A stretch of DNA of 5,957 nucleotides from JAMORN01 sp027063545 [NCBI: bacterium] (lineage in GTDB: Bacteria > JAMORN01). The notes under the pieces were generated by a model. That model was not told the DNA's origin, made no database searches, and saw nothing but the letters and a program-made list of their open reading frames with translations. The DNA lies in NCBI GenBank assembly GCA_027063545.1, contig JAMORN010000162.1, forward strand, positions 1 through 5,957. The letters are read 5' to 3'. Below, in pieces: positions 1-5,957 of this stretch (positions are counted from its first letter, which is position 1; each line of letters starts with the position of its first letter). The translations under genes and the position numbers were made by a program.

Positions 1-365
1 TTAAATCATATAAAAAAGAATACAAAGATGGAGAACAAAAAAGGGATTTTATTTATGTAAAAGATGTAGCAAAGGTTATTCTATTTTTTTTAGAAAATAT
101 AGAAAAAAATGGACTTTTTAATGTAGGTACATCCCAAGCAAGAAGCTGGAATGAATTAGCAAAGGTTATATTTGAAACTTTGAATATACCAATTAATATA
201 GAATATATAGATATGCCCGAAGACATCAAAAAAAATTATCAATATTTTACACAGGCAAATATCAATAAACTCAGAGAAGCTGGATATATAGACGAGTTTA
301 CTCCAATAGAAGAAGGTGTAAAAGAATATATAAATAATTATCTAGAAAAAAAAGAGTACATATAA
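1..365 (+). CDS. hldD: ADP-L-glycero-D-manno-heptose 6-epimerase, C-terminal part (5' end outside window)
   Basis: The open frame runs in from the left edge (first whole codon at base 3) and ends at TAA 363-365, giving about 120 C-terminal residues. HldD is an NADP-dependent short-chain dehydrogenase/reductase that epimerises ADP-D-glycero-D-manno-heptose to the L-glycero form, the precursor of LPS inner-core heptose, in the cytoplasm. The visible part carries the family's C-terminal signature as I recall it: DGEQKRDFIYVKDVA, then GLFNVGTSQARSW, then the segment with YIDMPEDIKKNYQYFTQA and N-LREAGY, ending with an E-GVKEYINNYL helix. This order matches E. coli HldD closely, especially the 'Y-QYFTQA' and 'LR-AGY' blocks, which ordinary UDP-glucose 4-epimerases lack. 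The N-terminal Rossmann glycine motif and the catalytic YxxxK lie outside the window. The gene sits 17 bases upstream of a glycosyltransferase on the same strand and probably shares its transcript. Confidence 0.85.
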   Translation, partial: KSYKKEYKDGEQKRDFIYVKDVAKVILFFLENIEKNGLFNVGTSQARSWNELAKVIFETLNIPINIEYIDMPEDIKKNYQYFTQANINKLREAGYIDEFTPIEEGVKEYINNYLEKKEYI

Positions 366-370
366 TAAAA

Positions 371-376
371 AGGAGG
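371..376 (+). promoter_or_regulatory. Ribosome binding site of the GT-A glycosyltransferase gene
   Basis: AGGAGG lies six bases before the ATG at 383 and is a full Shine-Dalgarno match. It favours this ATG over the in-frame ATG at 392, which would be 15 bases away. Confidence 0.8.
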
Positions 377-382
377 CTAAAA

Positions 383-1828
383 ATGTTAATAATGTATAAA
401 ATTGATGAAACCCCTAAAGAAGGAGAAATTAGTTTTATTATAAATAAAATTAAGGCTAATTTTATAATAGGGCATCCTACATATAATAATCAAGATAATA
501 TTGGATCCTTAATAGAGAAAGATATTAAAGGTATATTAAAATATATAAAAGAAAATTCTCTTATAATAATTAGTGATGGAACTAAAACTATAGAAAATGA
601 TGATAAAAGTGTTTTTGAGGCTATAGAGAAAATTTTTCCTATTTTAAAAGAAAAATATGAACAGAATTTAAATAATTTAAATATTGATGTGGCTATCTTG
701 GTTAGTATGTATGATGGATATATGGGGAATAGAATTCCGGGTAAAGGGTCTGCTTTAAAACTAATATACAGTGAAGTATACAACTCAAATTTCGGAGAAT
801 TTCTAACCCTTTTAGATGGAGATTTAAGAAATGATGTTAATGAATGGATTGGAGTTTATAAAAAGATCATAGAATATCATAAAGAGAATTTTGGTGATAA
901 GCCTTTATTTGTTACAGCAAAATATGCTCGTCATTTTGTTGATGCCTCTTTAACAAGATTTATTGTTTCTCCTTTAACAACTGGTTTTGGTATGTTTGTT
1001 CCTGGAGGAATATCAGGAGATATATTTTTAAATAAAAAGGCAGTGGAAAATGAAATAAAGGCTAAATGGTCTGAAAATAGATATAAATATGGGACTGATA
1101 TATCAACTACAATTGATAATATTGTAAATGGTACAATAATATATGAGGCTTATTTAGGTGCCAAACTACATGATATAACCGATGAAGCAAAACTTGCAAT
1201 AATGCCAAGAGAAGTAATTGGTGCAATTTTAGAAAAATTTATAGAAAAAGAAAAGGAAAATGGTATTATATCTAAGATAAAACAAGAAAAACTTGAGTTA
1301 AAATTTCCAATAATATTTGATTCTTCAAAAACAGGTATAGATTTTATTGATCCAGGTTATACAGATGTATTCAATATTGATGTAAAGACAACTAATTTAA
1401 TTGAAAAATTTATAGACTACAAAAACTCCATAGAAAAGGTATTTGGCACAAGCTTTGCAAAAGAAATAGAAAAAAGAGTTGAAAAGTTAAAAGAAAATTA
1501 TAAAAATGAAAATAACAAGATTTTATTCCTAGATATAAACAGAGATCTTTGGATAGATATATTAAATAAAGCTTTAAATTATATTTTATCTACAGAGGAC
1601 GTTGAAAATACAAAGACTGCTCTTAGTTATTTGTATACAGCAAGTTTTCTTGAATTTGTAAAAGAAAAACTTGAGTTTTTAAATATAAAAACATATAAAG
1701 AAATAAGAAAAAAACAAAAGAAGTTAGGTGTTCCTAAAGAGATTGCAAAAGAATTCTATGAAAAGGAAGTTGATGAAAAAATTAAAGATATGAGTATAAA
1801 ATTTTATAACCTCTTTATAGGAGGATAA
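383..1828 (+). CDS. GT-A glycosyltransferase, probable glucosyl-3-phosphoglycerate or glucosylglycerate synthase
   Basis: A 481-residue cytoplasmic protein without signal peptide or membrane segments. It has a GT-A layout: a first strand FIIGHPTYNN (27-36), an SDGT turn (64-67), a PGKGSAL donor loop (119-125), and LLDGDLRN with the metal-binding DxD at 145-147. PGGISGD (207-213), YGTDI (236-240) and a late histidine at 263 (LGAKLHD) follow. The same order (PGKG, DAD, GG-E, GID, then a histidine metal ligand) is what I recall of Rhodothermus mannosylglycerate synthase (GT78), and GpgS enzymes (GT81) share the same scheme. The family inference is therefore transfer of a sugar from a nucleotide sugar to D-glycerate or 3-phosphoglycerate. 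The protein is about 100 residues longer than MgS, with a Lys/Glu-rich helical C-terminal region from about 285. The HAD phosphatase two genes downstream argues for the phosphorylated acceptor, as in GpgS. Glucose as donor sugar, and the choice between GpgS and a direct synthase, are not proven. The last codons contain the next gene's ribosome binding site. Confidence 0.68.
   Translation: MLIMYKIDETPKEGEISFIINKIKANFIIGHPTYNNQDNIGSLIEKDIKGILKYIKENSLIIISDGTKTIENDDKSVFEAIEKIFPILKEKYEQNLNNLNIDVAILVSMYDGYMGNRIPGKGSALKLIYSEVYNSNFGEFLTLLDGDLRNDVNEWIGVYKKIIEYHKENFGDKPLFVTAKYARHFVDASLTRFIVSPLTTGFGMFVPGGISGDIFLNKKAVENEIKAKWSENRYKYGTDISTTIDNIVNGTIIYEAYLGAKLHDITDEAKLAIMPREVIGAILEKFIEKEKENGIISKIKQEKLELKFPIIFDSSKTGIDFIDPGYTDVFNIDVKTTNLIEKFIDYKNSIEKVFGTSFAKEIEKRVEKLKENYKNENNKILFLDINRDLWIDILNKALNYILSTEDVENTKTALSYLYTASFLEFVKEKLEFLNIKTYKEIRKKQKKLGVPKEIAKEFYEKEVDEKIKDMSIKFYNLFIGG
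1819..1824 (+). promoter_or_regulatory. Ribosome binding site of the GT4 gene, inside the preceding coding sequence
   Basis: AGGAGG spans the final Ile-Gly-Gly codons of the upstream glycosyltransferase and sits six bases before the ATG at 1831. The stop codon (1826-1828) and the start are only two bases apart, so the two genes are likely translationally coupled. Confidence 0.8.
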
Positions 1829-1830
1829 AA

Positions 1831-3108
1831 ATGTGTTTAAGAATAGGATTTATAAGCACTAGAATTTCTGGTCTTGATGGTGTAAGTTTAGAAACAAAAA
1901 AATGGGTGAAAGTATTGGAAGAATGGGGACATAAGATATTCTATTTTGCAGGTGAGTTGGATACACCTGAAGATGTAAGCTATCTTGTTCCTGAAGCACA
2001 CTTTAAATATCAGGTAAATGAAGAGATTAATCAAGAGATTTTTAATATTCAAAAAAGGCCTAAAAAAACCACAAAAAAAATAGAAGAATTAAAGCAACAT
2101 CTTAAAGAACATCTTGAAAAATTTGTCAAAAAATTTGATATTCAAATGTTAATTGTCGAAAATGCTCTGGCAATTCCGATGCATATACCTTTAGGGCTTG
2201 CTATCACAGAACTTATTGCTGAGACTGGAATACCTACTATTGGGCATCATCATGACTTCTTCTGGGAAAGATCAAGATTTTTAATTAATGCAGTAAATGA
2301 GTACATAGAAATGGCTTTCCCTCCTAATTTACCTTTTATAAGACATGTGGTTATAAACTCTATTGCCCAGCAGGAGCTTGCCGCGAGAAAAGGGGTATCA
2401 TCATTTTTAATTCCTAATGTGATAGATTTTTCTAAGGAACCTCAAGAACCAACACCTGCAGAGAAACAGAGATTCTTAGAATATTTTGGGTTTGAAGAAG
2501 ATGCTATTATATTCTTACAACCAACAAGGGTTGTTGCAAGAAAAGGAATAGAGCATGCAATTCAACTTGTAAGGAAGTTAAATAATCCTAAAATAAAACT
2601 TGTTATTACTCACTCAAAAGGAGATGAAGGGCTTGATTATTATAATTGGTTAATAGAGTATGCAAGAAGTGAGAATATTAATATATACTTTGTTGATGAT
2701 AAATTAAATGTATCTGATAGTGAAAAAGAAAAAGGATATACCTTATGGGATGTCTATCCTTATGCTGACTTTGTTACCTATCCTTCAAGTTTTGAAGGTT
2801 TTGGTAATGCGTTTTTAGAAGCAATTTATTATAAAAAACCTTTATTAGTTAATAGATATCCTATTTACATTACTGATATAGAACCTAAAGGATTTAAAAC
2901 AATAACAATGAATGGATTTTTAACAGAAGACAATATTAAGGAGGTAAAAAGGGTTTTAGAAGATAGTCATTATAAAAAACTTATGGTTGATGAAAACTTT
3001 AAATTAGGAAAGAAATATTTCTCTTTTGATGTTTTAAGAAAAAAATTATTATCTATTTTTATTTCATTCTATGGAGTAATTAATGAAAATGATTTTAAAA
3101 TAGGGTAA
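1831..3108 (+). CDS. GT4-family retaining glycosyltransferase, probable mannosylglucosyl(phospho)glycerate synthase
   Basis: A 425-residue soluble GT-B enzyme. The N-terminal half has IGFISTRISGLDGVSLE (5-21), the glycine-containing first loop of GT4 enzymes, then FYFAGELD (37-44) and an unusual histidine cluster HHHDFFWER (139-147) expected near the acceptor site. The C-terminal nucleotide-sugar domain begins after PNVID (195-199). It has QPTRVVARKGIE (230-241), whose Arg233 and Lys238 are the usual phosphate-binding pair, and an E-x7-E motif (Glu322, Glu330) within PSSFEGFGNAFLEA. The DGVSLE, FYFAGELD and HHHDFFWER blocks resemble GT4 proteins that I associate with mannosylglucosylglycerate synthesis (MggA/MggS), recalled rather than searched. 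The enzyme probably moves mannose from GDP-mannose onto glucosyl-3-phosphoglycerate or glucosylglycerate made by the preceding gene product. Donor and acceptor are inferred from context. A general GT4 sugar transferase for envelope polysaccharide remains possible. The stretch around residues 72-100 is Lys/Glu-rich and probably helical, with A7 and A8 tracts in its codons. Confidence 0.7.
   Translation: MCLRIGFISTRISGLDGVSLETKKWVKVLEEWGHKIFYFAGELDTPEDVSYLVPEAHFKYQVNEEINQEIFNIQKRPKKTTKKIEELKQHLKEHLEKFVKKFDIQMLIVENALAIPMHIPLGLAITELIAETGIPTIGHHHDFFWERSRFLINAVNEYIEMAFPPNLPFIRHVVINSIAQQELAARKGVSSFLIPNVIDFSKEPQEPTPAEKQRFLEYFGFEEDAIIFLQPTRVVARKGIEHAIQLVRKLNNPKIKLVITHSKGDEGLDYYNWLIEYARSENINIYFVDDKLNVSDSEKEKGYTLWDVYPYADFVTYPSSFEGFGNAFLEAIYYKKPLLVNRYPIYITDIEPKGFKTITMNGFLTEDNIKEVKRVLEDSHYKKLMVDENFKLGKKYFSFDVLRKKLLSIFISFYGVINENDFKIG
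3102..3105 (+). promoter_or_regulatory. Weak ribosome binding site of the HAD phosphatase gene
   Basis: AGGG lies just before the TAA of the GT4 gene and eight bases before the ATG at 3114. It is weaker than the AGGAGG sites of the two genes before it, which fits lower expression or translation by coupling across the 5-base gap. Confidence 0.45.
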
Positions 3109-3113
3109 AATAA

Positions 3114-3956
3114 ATGAGGATAAAAGCGCTAATATTTGATATATATGGAACAATACTAATACCCTTTGATCCAAAGGCTAAGACAATCTCTGATCCTGGA
3201 AAAACTAAAAATATAGATAATGGATTAAAAAAATTATTAGAAATTCTAAAAGAAGAGTTTAAGATACATTTGAATGATTCTGAACAATACATTAGCTATC
3301 TTAAAGAAAAATATTTTAAACTAATAGAGTTTCTTCAAAACAAATCTAAAGAAAAGAAAAAAGAGATTGTATCTCCAGAGATTATAATTGAAGAGTTATG
3401 GAAAATATTATTAAAAGAAGAGTTCAATCTTAATATTAGTTTAGATAAACTTTCTGAAATTGCTCTTTTGGTTGAAAAAGAGGCAAATCCTACTATTATT
3501 GAGAGAGACACATATAAAACTCTAATATGGTTAAAAAATGATTTAAAAAATAAAGGAGTAAAAATTGGAGTGTTATCAAATGCCCAAAGTTATACTCCTA
3601 AAATAATTGAAGAAAATCTTTTTAAATATTCCTCTAAAAAAATTAATTTTTTTGACATATTTGATAAGGATATTTGTCTTTTCTCATATAAACTACTCTG
3701 TTCAAAACCAGATCCTATAGTTTATCATACACTAATAGATAAACTTTCTGAATATAATATTCCTCCAGAAAATACTCTTTTTATTGGCAATGATGGAATA
3801 AATGATATAAAAATACCTAAAGAATTTGGCTTTAAAACCTTATTTATAAATAAAGTTCCTGCAAATATTGATGAAGCCAAAAAATATATGGATTTTGAAG
3901 GAGAGGATATATCTATTTTACTCTCTCTTTATGAGAAAGGTAGCATCACCATATGA
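3114..3956 (+). CDS. HAD-superfamily hydrolase, probable mannosylglucosyl-3-phosphoglycerate phosphatase
   Basis: A 280-residue soluble protein of the haloacid-dehalogenase superfamily. Motif I is FDIYGT with the nucleophile Asp9. Motif II is LSNAQ (Ser155), motif III is SKPDP (Lys198), and motif IV is GNDGIND with Asp227 and Asp231. Residues about 20-130 between motifs I and II form a large mainly helical segment, as expected for a C1-type cap over the active site. Position 11, normally the second Asp of DxD that acts as acid/base in phosphatases, is Tyr. DxYGT variants are common in the superfamily and occur in 2-haloacid dehalogenases. Placed last in a glycosyltransferase cassette, the enzyme most simply removes the phosphate from (mannosyl)glucosyl-3-phosphoglycerate, the role of MggB in Petrotoga. 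That substrate is an inference from context. The last 39 bases overlap the 3' end of the convergent queA, encoding roughly the final dozen residues after LLSL. Confidence 0.7.
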   Translation: MRIKALIFDIYGTILIPFDPKAKTISDPGKTKNIDNGLKKLLEILKEEFKIHLNDSEQYISYLKEKYFKLIEFLQNKSKEKKKEIVSPEIIIEELWKILLKEEFNLNISLDKLSEIALLVEKEANPTIIERDTYKTLIWLKNDLKNKGVKIGVLSNAQSYTPKIIEENLFKYSSKKINFFDIFDKDICLFSYKLLCSKPDPIVYHTLIDKLSEYNIPPENTLFIGNDGINDIKIPKEFGFKTLFINKVPANIDEAKKYMDFEGEDISILLSLYEKGSITI

Positions 3957-4982
3957 ATAGAATCTATATTTTTTTTCTATAGCATGGCTATAAATCTTAT
4001 ACCAATGAGTTTTTTCTTTTGGTATATCAATAGAATCGTCTAAAAAAGCTGCTATAAGCATTAACAAAGTTGATTTAGGAAGATGGAAATTTGTTATAAG
4101 GGCATCTATAGATTCTATTTTATAAGGTGGATATATATAAAGATTTGTATGACCATGGCCATATGAAAAGGTTTTATTTTCCTTATCATATATCGTTTCT
4201 AATGTCCTTACAACTGTTGTCCCTGTTGCTATGATTCTTCTATTTTCCATTTTTGCTTTAGTTAATTTTTTAGCAACATCTTTTGATACAAAATACTCCT
4301 CATAATGCATTCTATGTTTTGTAACATCAGATGTTTTTACTGGTCTAAAAGTTCCAACACCTACATGAAGGGTAATATATAAAATATCTACTCCTTTTTC
4401 TCTTAATCTATGAAGAAGGTCTTCTGTAAAATGGAGCCCTGCTGTTGGAGCAGCTACAGATCCTTCTTTTTGGGCAAAAACTGTTTGATAAAGTATTTTA
4501 TCTTCGTCTTTATCCTTTCTTTTAATATAAGGAGGTAGAGGAACATGGCCTTTTGAATATAGAAGTTCTCTTATATCAAATTCACTATAACATAGCCTTG
4601 TTGCACCTATTGGAGAATCTTTTATTATATTTTTAAAAATAATCTCCTCTCCTGTTTCTAAAATAAACTTTTCTCCAATTTTCATTTTTTTTGTAGGTTT
4701 TCCCATTATCTCAAAATGGTGAGAATCAATGATCTTTAAAACAACAATCTCTGCATCTTTACCATTAATTTTACCTAAAAGCCTTGCTGGATAAACTTTT
4801 GTATTATTCAAAACTAAAATATCACCTTTTTTGAAATAATCTATAATCTCATAAAAAAATCTATCCTCAATAAGATCTTTCTGATAATGATATACTAAAA
4901 GCCTAGAATCTTTTCTCTTTTTTGATGGTTCTTGAGCTATTAAATCCTCTGGTAGATTATAATCAAATAATGAGATCTCCAT
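3918..4982 (-). CDS. queA: S-adenosylmethionine:tRNA ribosyltransferase-isomerase (epoxyqueuosine synthesis)
   Basis: A full-length 354-residue protein. QueA transfers and isomerises the ribosyl moiety of S-adenosylmethionine onto preQ1 at the wobble position (34) of GUN-anticodon tRNAs (Asp, Asn, His, Tyr), giving epoxyqueuosine. The family blocks appear in order: FDYNLPEDLIAQEP (6-19), SRLLV, GDILVLNNTKVYPARLLG (53-70), AAPTAGLHFT (177-186), TLHVGVGTFRPV (204-215), the MHYEEYF segment (225-231), ATGTTVVRTLE (252-262), TNFHLPKSTLLML (297-309) and the closing YRFYSYGDA (339-347). The start fits the family's usual N-terminus (ME-S-FDY-LP), although no Shine-Dalgarno precedes it. The stop is TAA, read on the minus strand at 3920-3918. 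The gene follows a DNA glycosylase gene by 35 bases on the same strand, and its tail overlaps the convergent HAD gene by 39 bases. No missing key residues were noticed. Confidence 0.96.
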   Translation of the reverse strand: MEISLFDYNLPEDLIAQEPSKKRKDSRLLVYHYQKDLIEDRFFYEIIDYFKKGDILVLNNTKVYPARLLGKINGKDAEIVVLKIIDSHHFEIMGKPTKKMKIGEKFILETGEEIIFKNIIKDSPIGATRLCYSEFDIRELLYSKGHVPLPPYIKRKDKDEDKILYQTVFAQKEGSVAAPTAGLHFTEDLLHRLREKGVDILYITLHVGVGTFRPVKTSDVTKHRMHYEEYFVSKDVAKKLTKAKMENRRIIATGTTVVRTLETIYDKENKTFSYGHGHTNLYIYPPYKIESIDALITNFHLPKSTLLMLIAAFLDDSIDIPKEKTHWYKIYSHAIEKKYRFYSYGDATFLIKRE

Positions 4983-5011: not shown

Positions 5012-5021
5012 TCTATTTCAA
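4993..5021 (-). promoter_or_regulatory. Possible internal promoter for queA
   Basis: On the minus strand, TTGAAA (5021-5016, five of six to the -35 consensus) is followed after exactly 17 bases by TATTTT (4998-4993, four of six to the -10 consensus). Transcription would begin around 4986, giving a leader of only a few bases before the ATG. That would agree with the missing Shine-Dalgarno sequence. AT-rich DNA yields such matches easily, so support is weak. Confidence 0.22.
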
Positions 5022-5704
5022 TCTTTTATTAATTTTTTTATCGGGCATTCATTACATTTTGGAGTTCTCTTGGAGCAATAATTTTTCCCAATATTTACAA
5101 ATAGAGCATGATACTCATTATATATTTTCACATCCTCTGGTATACTTAAATAAAATAATTTTGCTATCTCATCATATTCAATTTTATCACTCTCAATCAC
5201 CCCATGTCTTAAAAGAATCCTTTTTGTATAAGCATCTACAACAAAAATAGGTTTTTCAAATGCATATAAAATAATAGAATCTGCTGTTTCTTTTCCTACT
5301 CCCTTTACTGATAAAAGTTTTTCTCTTAAACTCCATTTATCAATACTAACATCAAATTTTCCACCAAACTCTTTTAACATAAATTCAGCAAAATTTTTTA
5401 ACTTCTGAGCTTTTTGATTATAATAACCAGATGGCTTAATAAGTTGCGCAAGATAATCTTTATCTAATTCTAAAATCTTTTTAAAATCTAATAAACCTTC
5501 TCTTTTTAAATTTTCAATCGCCTTTTCAACATTTTTCCATGTAGTATTTTGAGTTAAAATTGCCCCTATAGAAATCTCTTCTTTTGTCTCACCGGGCCAC
5601 CAATATTGAGGCCCTAAATAATCGTATAAGTGTTTATATAATAAAAAAAGATCTTTGGAAGAAAGTTGAGGCTCAACTTTTAAATCCATTTTGCTCATGT
5701 CCAA
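5018..5704 (-). CDS. Endonuclease III-related HhH-GPD DNA glycosylase (COG2231/MagIII type)
   Basis: A 228-residue base-excision-repair protein. GPQYWWPGETKEE (31-43) and GAILTQNTTWKNVEKAIENL (47-66) are the signature of the COG2231 branch that includes Helicobacter MagIII, a 3-methyladenine DNA glycosylase. A helix-hairpin-helix follows, LSVKGVGKETA (131-141), and then the catalytic aspartate Asp157 in FVVDAYTKRIL. The residue that is the lyase lysine (Lys120) in E. coli Nth is Glu139 here, so a monofunctional glycosylase without beta-lyase activity is expected. The C-terminus has Cys210, Cys217 and Cys220 spaced like the first three iron-sulfur ligands of endonuclease III, but no fourth cysteine, so a standard [4Fe-4S] cluster is doubtful. 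The start is taken as TTG because AGGG sits six bases upstream. ATG at 5698 is the alternative, losing two residues. The gene begins eight bases after the upstream outer-membrane-like gene. Target base is inferred only from the subfamily. Confidence 0.85.
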   Translation of the reverse strand: MDMSKMDLKVEPQLSSKDLFLLYKHLYDYLGPQYWWPGETKEEISIGAILTQNTTWKNVEKAIENLKREGLLDFKKILELDKDYLAQLIKPSGYYNQKAQKLKNFAEFMLKEFGGKFDVSIDKWSLREKLLSVKGVGKETADSIILYAFEKPIFVVDAYTKRILLRHGVIESDKIEYDEIAKLFYLSIPEDVKIYNEYHALFVNIGKNYCSKRTPKCNECPIKKLIKD

Positions 5705-5710
5705 CTAAAA

Positions 5711-5716
5711 CCCTAA
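5711..5716 (-). promoter_or_regulatory. Probable ribosome binding site deciding the TTG start of the glycosylase gene
   Basis: TTAGGG on the minus strand overlaps the TAG stop of the upstream gene and ends six bases before the TTG at 5704. The ATG at 5698 would be 12 bases away, which makes TTG the better-placed start. Confidence 0.4.
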
Positions 5717-5957
5717 TATCCTACCATTATACCAAACCTATATGTCCTAAGTTCATTCACACCCGGATAATCTCCCTCTTCCTCCGCATAAGAAGCAAAA
5801 CTCACCTTTACGCCTACATATCTAACAAAAAATCCCCATGTAGGATATCCTTGAGAAATCCCTACCATAAAGCCTATAGGAATCCAAGAGACCTCCATAC
5901 CTGTATTTATCTTTTTCCCTAACGCATAATCTCCTGTTAAATAACTTATAGAGAAGG
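5713..5957 (-). CDS. Putative outer-membrane beta-barrel protein, C-terminal part (5' end outside window)
   Basis: The frame is open from the right edge to TAG (minus strand, 5715-5713), giving about 81 C-terminal residues. An in-frame ATG at 5898 is internal: the frame continues upstream of it with the same kind of sequence (FSISYLTGDYALGKKINTG), so it should not be taken as the start. The residues alternate polar and hydrophobic in short strands (MEVSWIPIGFMVGI, WGFFVRYVGVKVSFASYA, TYRFGIMVGY) separated by Gly/Pro/Asp/Asn turns. The chain ends in an aromatic residue after a strand, as BAM-assembled outer-membrane barrels do. The pattern with SQGYPTWG and YAEEEGDYPG recalls uncharacterised outer-membrane proteins of Gram-negative thermophiles and spirochaetes, but I cannot name the family. 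It is followed after eight bases by the DNA glycosylase gene and probably heads or belongs to the same transcript. Confidence 0.6.
   Translation of the reverse strand, partial: FSISYLTGDYALGKKINTGMEVSWIPIGFMVGISQGYPTWGFFVRYVGVKVSFASYAEEEGDYPGVNELRTYRFGIMVGY

What the first reader, a model, noticed from the sequence alone, without database searches (positions are those of the whole stretch)
383..3956. Three-gene cassette consistent with mannosylglucosylglycerate synthesis
A GT-A glycosyltransferase with glycerate-glycoside synthase features, a GT4 transferase and a HAD phosphatase are packed with 2- and 5-base spacings. This is the enzyme set expected for making a phosphorylated glucosylglycerate, extending it with mannose and dephosphorylating it, as established for GpgS/MggA/MggB in Petrotoga mobilis. 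The motifs are seen directly; the pathway assignment is inference. If correct, it predicts a rare compatible solute in this organism, or a lipid or polysaccharide built on glucosylglycerate.
Basis: partly seen in the sequence, partly recalled or inferred. Interest (0 to 1): 0.6.

Follow-up and report, generated by a model that had tools for sequence, protein, structure and literature searches.

The report
Genes for a glycerate-sugar stress solute
Three neighbouring genes in an uncultured bacterium probably build a sugar attached to glycerate, of the kind some heat- and salt-tolerant bacteria use to protect their cells, and the first of the three is a distant, never-tested type of the enzyme that starts such molecules.

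Summary
In detail: three + strand ORFs (383-1828, 1831-3108, 3114-3956), 2 and 5 bases apart, encode a GT-A transferase, a GT4 transferase and a HAD hydrolase. The glycerate-glycoside reading holds at class level. Gene 1's family matches mannosylglycerate synthase (GT78) and GpgS (GT81) best in the PDB, and its model matches mannosylglycerate synthase over nearly the whole chain (Z 26). Gene 2 is MggS-like (250 bits, cut-off 640). The same trio, in another order, recurs on one deltaproteobacterial contig. Gene 1 is not a GpgS: it lacks the Arg present in all 38 GpgS-type sequences aligned. Gene 2 is outside the MggA-type clade. Gene 3 is a DxYGT HAD, probably not MggB. A GpgS over the curated cut-off sits elsewhere in the genome near a GDP-mannose synthesis gene; no MggA-type gene was found (assembly 83% complete). 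Best reading, inferred: gene 1 makes glucosylglycerate, gene 2 adds mannose, gene 3 dephosphorylates glucosyl-3-phosphoglycerate or its mannosylated form. Gene 1 belongs to an uncharacterised long subfamily (9 members found). No activity has been shown.

The parts
383..1828 (+). Gene 1: GT-A transferase, 481 aa, member of a long, divergent subfamily of mannosylglycerate-synthase-like enzymes; proposed D-glycerate glucosyltransferase
1831..3108 (+). Gene 2: GT4 transferase, 425 aa, MggS-like (mannosylglucosylglycerate synthase-like); proposed transfer of mannose to glucosylglycerate
   Evidence: NF041101 3.8e-74, 250 bits, cut-off 640; 12 places stand apart at 193-702 bits in 145 genomes, next 98; tree
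3114..3956 (+). Gene 3: HAD-IA hydrolase with helical cap, 280 aa, motif I DxYGT; proposed phosphatase for glucosyl-3-phosphoglycerate or the mannosylated form
   Evidence: PF00702 4.6e-11; model pLDDT 90.7; co-clustering with GpgS/GT4 genes; alignment
370..376 (+). Ribosome-binding site AAGGAGG, 6 bases before gene 1
   Evidence: sequence
1819..1824 (+). Ribosome-binding site AGGAGG at the end of gene 1, 6 bases before gene 2
   Evidence: sequence
3..365 (+). C-terminal part of an ADP-heptose epimerase (HldD-like), 17 bases before gene 1; the contig starts inside it; may share the transcript but is not part of the proposed pathway
   Evidence: TIGR02197 6.7e-42, 143.8 bits, cut-off 274.6 for the whole protein

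Best explanation
The three genes form an operon for a glycerate-based disaccharide glycoside of the mannosylglucosylglycerate (MGG) type. Gene 1 transfers a hexose, most likely glucose from an NDP-glucose, to O-2 of free D-glycerate (inferred). Gene 2 adds a second hexose, most likely mannose from GDP-mannose (inferred). Gene 3 removes phosphate from glucosyl-3-phosphoglycerate made by the GpgS encoded elsewhere in the same genome, or from its mannosylated form, so that the phosphorylating and the direct route meet (inferred). Shown here: the families, the layout, the predicted fold, the conserved active-site residues, the recurrence of the three families together on one other contig and of parts of the set with GpgS-type genes in other bacteria, the GpgS gene and a GDP-mannose synthesis gene elsewhere in this genome, and no detectable MggA-type gene in the incomplete assembly. 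This resembles the direct Ggs/MggS route with an added phosphatase more than the GpgS/MggA/MggB route.
For: Gene 1 family profile against PDB sequences: mannosylglycerate synthase 3e-13, GpgS 3e-12, then R. xylanophilus MpgS 3e-5. Gene 1 model: mannosylglycerate synthase Z 26.3, rmsd 3.4, 356 residues; next GT81 enzymes Z 16. Residues given in PMC2581804 for GpgS/MgS (Lys114/76, Asp134/100, Asp136/102, Thr187/139, Glu232/Asp192, His258/217, Met269/229) correspond by motif to K121, D145, D147, T191, D239, H263, M274, kept in 9 of 9 long members. Gene 2: NF041101 3.8e-74. In the presumed Thermotogota 60 of 103 genomes hold both relatives (65 and 76 singly), and in 31 of the 60 they lie within 5 kb. 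Trio on L189. Long gene-1 relatives lie beside HAD and GT4 genes in 5 of 8 genomes. Of 80 named gene-2 loci, recounted without ORF filter, 21 carry the HAD, 24 the MggA-type GT4, 22 a GpgS-type gene, 1 a long gene-1 relative. Of 43 stretches around short gene-1 relatives 13 hold a GpgS-type gene; in 3 genomes the two are one fused protein. Own genome: GpgS 374.7 bits, cut-off 262, ManC about 1 kb away; no MggA-type gene.
Against: No activity, solute or expression data. Gene 1 alone, or with its relative L189 only, finds no convincing PDB sequence; the link runs through the short family and a model of moderate confidence (pLDDT 68). The long subfamily sits on a very long branch (3.7 changes per column) and has PGG where 37 of 37 short members have RQP before the donor loop, so donor and acceptor may have changed. 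Gene 2 is far below the equivalog cut-off (250 against 640). Motif I of gene 3 is DxYGT, as in L-2-haloacid dehalogenases (recalled), not DxD as in most HAD phosphatases; 29 of 31 distinct family sequences, gene 3 included, have Tyr there. The trio in one direction was seen only in L189, in another order (HAD, gene 1, gene 2); in L263, L264, L265 and L267 the gene-1 relative is on the strand opposite to the HAD, and in 3 of 8 genomes it has no such neighbours. 29 of 43 stretches around short gene-1 relatives show none of the partner genes (some stretches end at contig ends). If gene 1 uses free glycerate, that route needs no phosphatase. A heptose gene lies directly upstream. The assembly is 83% complete, so an MggA gene could be missing from it.
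Confidence: 0.55

Rival explanations
1. The phosphorylating MGG route: gene 1 makes glucosyl-3-phosphoglycerate, gene 2 mannosylates the phosphorylated intermediate, gene 3 dephosphorylates it.
For: A phosphatase-type gene sits in the operon; gene-3 relatives accompany GpgS-type and MggA-type genes (L043, L048, L057, L130, L263-L265, L267); the closest gene-2 relatives L043/L130 lie in a GpgS-GT4a-GT4b-HAD cluster; gene 1 has S211 and Y236 as in GT81-type GpgS.
Against: Gene 1 is outside both GpgS clades, has Ser189 where GpgS-type enzymes have Arg in 38 of 38, and Asp187 where GT81-type GpgS have Gly in 19 of 19; the genome has a GpgS elsewhere; gene 2 is not of the MggA type.
Confidence: 0.2
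2. A different glycerate glycoside: for example diglucosylglycerate, mannosylglycerate or a mannosyl-mannosylglycerate, or a longer chain built on glucosylglycerate as in mycobacterial methylglucose lipopolysaccharide.
For: Mannosylglycerate synthase is the best fold match; gene 2 is far below the MggS cut-off; clusters in other genomes hold up to four transferases (L263, L264, L265, L267).
Against: Gene 2 is nearest to MggS among named families; a GDP-mannose synthesis gene lies near GpgS; only two transferases lie in this operon.
Confidence: 0.15
3. Envelope glycan or LPS core assembly: the transferases act on heptose or lipid-linked acceptors, with the upstream HldD making the donor.
For: HldD-like gene ends 17 bases before gene 1 on the same strand; weak polysaccharide-type hits of gene 2 (EPS_HpsP 3e-4; a mannosyltransferase in the PDB at 0.41); polyprenyl-phosphate transferases such as GtrB and ArnC among the lower fold matches of gene 1 (Z about 14).
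Against: The best named matches of both proteins are glycerate-glycoside enzymes by a wide margin; L189 has the trio without HldD on its 4.7 kb contig; short gene-1 relatives are tied to GpgS, MggS and, in one cluster, glycerate kinase.
Confidence: 0.07

Closest known systems
Mannosylglycerate synthase of Rhodothermus marinus (GT78; PDB 2bo4, 2y4j)
   Same: Same predicted fold over nearly the whole chain; same metal, donor and glycerate-binding residues as far as aligned
   Different: 14-15% identity; gene 1 is longer (481 against 397 residues) and has Ser instead of Gly in the donor loop, which argues for glucose
Short mannosylglycerate-synthase-like family beside MggS in the presumed Thermotogota (presumed glucosylglycerate synthase, Ggs)
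   Same: Same acceptor-loop pattern (R, D, T; no GpgS Arg), same partner gene
Glucosyl-3-phosphoglycerate synthase GpgS (GT81, NF010496)
   Same: Common GT-A superfamily, Ser in donor loop, Tyr at 236
   Different: Gene 1 gets no NF010496 hit and lacks the conserved Arg of the acceptor loop; the genome's GpgS is on contig C180
Mannosylglucosylglycerate synthase MggS (NF041101, GT4)
   Same: Gene 2 matches the model over positions 2-426 of 431, 250 bits
   Different: Below the 640-bit cut-off; belongs to the large clade beside, not inside, the Thermotogota clade
MggA-type GT4 (gene after GpgS in the putative P. mobilis genome)
   Same: GT4, weakly similar
   Different: Gene 2 lies in a different clade, 100/100 support
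HAD-IA phosphatases and L-2-haloacid dehalogenases
   Same: Gene 3 has the HAD core, helical cap, nucleophile Asp, Ser, Lys and acidic motif IV
   Different: DxYGT replaces DxDGT; probably not the family whose name MggB is used in print

Membership tests
GpgS (GT81) for gene 1 | Match to the curated GpgS model NF010496 (cut-off 262 bits) | tested here: not met
   No hit, while C180 GpgS scores 374.7
GpgS (GT81) for gene 1 | Arg in the G-R-V-T acceptor loop (conserved in all GpgS-type sequences aligned; its role in phosphate binding is recalled) | tested here: not met
   Ser189 in 9 of 9 long members; Arg in 19 of 19 GT81-type and 19 of 19 methanogen-type GpgS
GT78 mannosylglycerate synthase for gene 1 | Whole-chain fold | tested here: met
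   Z 26.3, rmsd 3.4, 356 aligned of 377, on a predicted model of pLDDT 68
GT78 mannosylglycerate synthase for gene 1 | Match to Pfam MGS_GT (PF21969) | tested here: not met
   No hit for gene 1 or its long relatives L189 and L261; three short-family proteins 16.8-26.5 bits, cut-off 27
GT78 mannosylglycerate synthase for gene 1 | Metal, donor and glycerate-carboxylate residues | tested here: met
   K121, D145, D147, T191, D239, H263, M274 in 9 of 9; equivalences by motif from PMC2581804; the synthase itself was not in that alignment
Glucosylglycerate synthase (Ggs) for gene 1 | NDP-glucose:D-glycerate activity | not testable with these tools
   Needs enzyme assay
MggS (NF041101) for gene 2 | Score over the curated cut-off of 640 bits | tested here: not met
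   250 bits; only 1 of 145 genomes is over the cut-off
MggS (NF041101) for gene 2 | Same clade as the Thermotogota proteins, apart from other GT4 | tested here: inconclusive
   Lies beside the Thermotogota clade (94/96 support); both apart from GT4a/GT4c with 100/100
MggA for gene 2 | Membership of the GT4a clade holding the gene after GpgS in G432 | tested here: not met
MggB for gene 3 | Homology to characterised R. baltica MggB | tested here: inconclusive
   Reference sequence not at hand (papers not held); name used for AdsA/SasH-type proteins; but a gene-3 relative exists in the putative R. baltica genome, next to a gene-2 relative
HAD phosphatase for gene 3 | Two aspartates in motif I (DxDx[TV]) | tested here: not met
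   DIYGT; Tyr in 9 of 9 aligned and 29 of 31 distinct family sequences, two unread by the pattern
HAD phosphatase for gene 3 | HAD fold with nucleophile Asp, motif II Ser, motif III Lys, motif IV acids | tested here: met
   D9, S155, K198, D227, D231 invariant; model pLDDT 90.7, Z up to 19

The most novel reading that the evidence does not exclude
Gene 1 is a member of a new glycosyltransferase family with its own donor or acceptor, so that this operon and related clusters in several genomes of another phylum make a glycerate glycoside that has not been described, finished by a HAD enzyme with unusual chemistry (DxYGT).
Probability: 0.2. Interest if true: 0.65.

Novelty: new variant of a known kind. 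Interest (0 to 1): 0.45.

Why it matters
MGG was called a rare solute, reported from Petrotoga and Rhodopirellula (PMC3694870, passages). If the trio works as proposed, glycerate glycosides are more widespread than the records say, and an uncharacterised transferase subfamily and a HAD family can be assigned by simple assays. It would also show a route in which a free-glycerate enzyme and a separate GpgS feed one mannosyltransferase.

Tried and rejected
GpgS identity of gene 1: rejected. MggA identity of gene 2: rejected. O-antigen/EPS transferases: only far weaker hits (EPS_HpsP 3e-4, a mannosyltransferase at 0.41, polyprenyl-phosphate transferases at Z about 14). Dead ends: a scan of genome contigs with gene 1 alone found no relative; gene 1 alone gave only unrelated PDB hits (best E 0.28) and the gene 1 + L189 profile none at 0.01; the gene-2 profile found none at 1e-6, gene 2 alone only weak hits, best 0.016 to a methionine-tRNA ligase domain; gene 3 alone gave as first hits designed repeat proteins and a ribofuranosyl transferase with a HAD-like part; promoter- and terminator-like sites in the window are at shuffled level (38 against 37.3; 2 against 2.1); the glucosylglycerate review PMC11009771 has none of the names searched in it. 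Counts use mechanical ORFs with overlaps removed by length, so they are lower bounds: the gene-2 relative itself was recovered in 76 of 80 loci. I recounted without that filter (7 long-gene-1 loci plus L189, L286, L287; 80 named loci: gene-2 relative 80, MggA-type 24, HAD 21, GT81-type GpgS 13, methanogen-type GpgS 9, M20 13, long gene-1 relative 1; 43 stretches around short gene-1 relatives: GpgS-type in 13, any partner in 14, none in 29; some of the 43 come from the same genome or end at a contig end). For the residue table and tree rows were dropped before counting: identical sequences, family scores under 250 bits (150 for the methanogen type), lengths outside 280-600 aa (so the fusions); 84 rows remained. 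The GT4 tree used a hand-picked subset of loci (55 rows). In the HAD motif count only sequences over 100 bits were taken.
Full report
Observation. The window holds three + strand genes at 383-1828, 1831-3108 and 3114-3956 with 2 and 5 bases between them and clear ribosome-binding sites 6 bases before genes 1 and 2. Upstream, 17 bases away, ends an ADP-heptose epimerase cut by the contig start; downstream, on the other strand, lie queA and an endonuclease III-like gene. The window is a whole contig (C162, 5957 bases) of a 1.57 Mb assembly, 83% complete, whose held relatives are only 'same domain'.

Gene 1. Alone it hits no curated family. A protein search of 41 genomes found relatives in six others (7 of 41 with its own), best 2.4e-17. 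A profile of seven family members matches, among PDB sequences, mannosylglycerate synthase (3e-13), GpgS (3e-12) and R. xylanophilus MpgS (3e-5) before anything else. The AlphaFold model (pLDDT 68, no templates) gives mannosylglycerate synthase at Z 26.3 over 356 residues, with GT81 enzymes next at Z 16 over about 225-245. A search with gene 1 and L189 only finds nothing in the PDB at 0.01, so the link depends on the wider family and the model.

What gene 1 is not. In an alignment of 84 sequences (9 long relatives, 37 short, 19 GT81-type GpgS, 19 methanogen-type GpgS) the positions that correspond by motif to residues which PMC2581804 (passages, and sections 13 and 14) gives as shared by GpgS and mannosylglycerate synthase are kept in all nine long members: K121, D145, D147, T191, D239, H263, M274. 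The Arg of the GpgS loop (38 of 38 GpgS-type) is Ser in 9 of 9 long and Thr in 36 of 37 short members; D187, found in 9 of 9 long and 37 of 37 short members, is Gly in 19 of 19 GT81-type GpgS. So the acceptor pocket looks like that of the free-glycerate enzymes. That the Arg binds the phosphate is recalled; the paper found that loop disordered. This favours glucose as donor, on modelling arguments only. The tree puts the nine long members in one fully supported clade on the side of the short family, apart from both GpgS groups, but on a branch of 3.7 changes per column.

Gene 2. It matches NF041101 (MggS) over its length at 250 bits, cut-off 640. In 145 genomes 12 places score 193-702 bits and the next best 98, so this is a distinct family and not GT4 background. 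In a tree of 55 GT4 proteins it groups with L043 and L130, inside a large clade beside the presumed Thermotogota MggS proteins; the MggA-type GT4 form a separate clade. L043 and L130 carry M20 peptidase-GpgS-GT4a-GT4b-HAD, i.e. gene-2 and gene-3 relatives directly after GpgS and the MggA-type gene.

Gene 3. It is a HAD-IA protein with a helical cap (model pLDDT 90.7); structural neighbours are both phosphatases and dehalogenases, Z 16.7-19.0. Motif I is DIYGT; of 31 distinct family sequences over 100 bits, gene 3 included, 29 have Tyr in place of the second Asp and two were not read by the pattern. The name MggB is used in print for AdsA/SasH-type surface proteins (PMC7137321 and PMC7244159, passages), which I recall as 5'-nucleotidases; this suggests that characterised MggB is of another superfamily. 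I could not compare sequences directly, and a gene-3 relative does exist in the putative R. baltica genome. Its cluster partners make (mannosyl)glucosyl-3-phosphoglycerate the likeliest substrate; the chemistry is open.

Neighbourhoods. In the phylum of G192 (presumed Thermotogota, 103 genomes) the short gene-1 family occurs in 65, the gene-2 family in 76, both in 60 (Fisher p 4e-8, though related genomes are not independent), and in 31 of the 60 the two genes lie within 5 kb. In a genome whose contig length (2,169,548) equals the size I recall for Petrotoga mobilis, GpgS is followed by a GT4a gene, while the short gene-1 relative and the MggS gene lie apart; this fits the two routes that I recall from Fernandes et al. 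2010 (paper not held). Of 80 named gene-2 loci (the best 80 of 573 confirmed), 24 hold GT4a, 21 the HAD, 13 the GT81-type GpgS, 9 the methanogen-type GpgS and 1 a gene-1 relative (filtered counts were lower). That one, L189 (Deltaproteobacteria bacterium B119_G9), has HAD, a long gene-1 relative (44% identity), a gene-2 relative and a partial GpgS-type gene in a row on one strand, in an order unlike the window's. A search of 345 genomes of its phylum, drawn evenly from a larger group, found 8 long members, its own included. 5 of the 8 lie beside HAD and GT4 genes, but in four of these five (L263, L264, L265, L267) on the opposite strand from the HAD; 3 of 8 do not, though one of those three genomes (G674) holds the cluster elsewhere (L287). 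Of 43 stretches around short gene-1 relatives, 13 hold a GpgS-type gene and 29 none of the partners. Three genomes encode GpgS and a short gene-1 relative as one fused protein, and one cluster includes a glycerate kinase.

Own genome. A GpgS over the curated cut-off (374.7, cut-off 262) lies on contig C180, with a GDP-mannose synthesis gene (TIGR01479, 484 bits, cut-off 373) about 1 kb away. C180 has the base make-up of the window (GC 0.27 and 0.28; tetranucleotide correlation 0.99), but an AT-rich locus of another genome also reaches 0.96, so this is weak support for common origin. A search for the MggA type found only the cross-hit of gene 2 and a 15-bit match.

Mechanism and standing. The direct route (gene 1 to glucosylglycerate, gene 2 to MGG) fits best, with gene 3 taking phosphate off the product of GpgS or its mannosylated form so that both routes meet. 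Families, layout, predicted fold and residues are shown; substrates, order and product are inferred. The presence of a phosphatase-type gene beside a free-glycerate enzyme is the least explained point. PMC3694870 (passages) reports MGG in Petrotoga and in R. baltica as a solute; PMC13342039 (passages) says the biosynthesis was characterised in R. baltica. My paper searches were by compound and enzyme names, I saw mostly listings, and the library lacks the two key papers, so I make no claim that this trio is absent from print.

Verdict. Observation confirmed, interpretation partly supported: right class of product, probably the wrong sub-pathway. It is a new variant of a known kind with an uncharacterised transferase subfamily.

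Noticed in passing
window 3-365: C-terminal part of an ADP-heptose epimerase 17 bases before gene 1, same strand; the contig begins inside it, so the operon's start is unseen.
   Followed up: partly
window 3918-4982 (-): queA overlaps the 3' end of gene 3 by 39 bases, convergent.
   Followed up: no
window 5018-5704 (-): Endonuclease III / 3-methyladenine glycosylase-like protein below the cut-offs of the named families (NF010494 136.5 bits, cut-off 192).
   Followed up: no
window 5713-5955 (-): Open-ended ORF without any Pfam or NCBIfam match; looks to me like the end of an outer-membrane beta-barrel protein.
   Followed up: no
L043:1378-2607, L048:6426-7637, L130:4342-5517, L243:4688-5830: An M20-type peptidase-like gene stands before GpgS in several of these clusters (M20 in 13 of 80 named gene-2 loci) with no obvious role in solute synthesis.
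   Followed up: partly
L054, L086, L088: Natural fusions of GpgS with a mannosylglycerate-synthase-like enzyme in one 733-755 aa protein.
   Followed up: partly
L269:3733-6722: In the putative R. baltica genome the gene-2 relative lies between the HAD and a sucrose-phosphorylase-like GH13 enzyme (TIGR03852 211 bits, cut-off 334), perhaps a glucosylglycerate phosphorylase.
   Followed up: partly
L245:3306-8223: In a presumed Thermotoga genome a GH38 enzyme (mannosylglycerate hydrolase-like, NF007331 212 bits, cut-off 1138) precedes the MggS and short gene-1 relatives, suggesting breakdown of the same solute.
   Followed up: no
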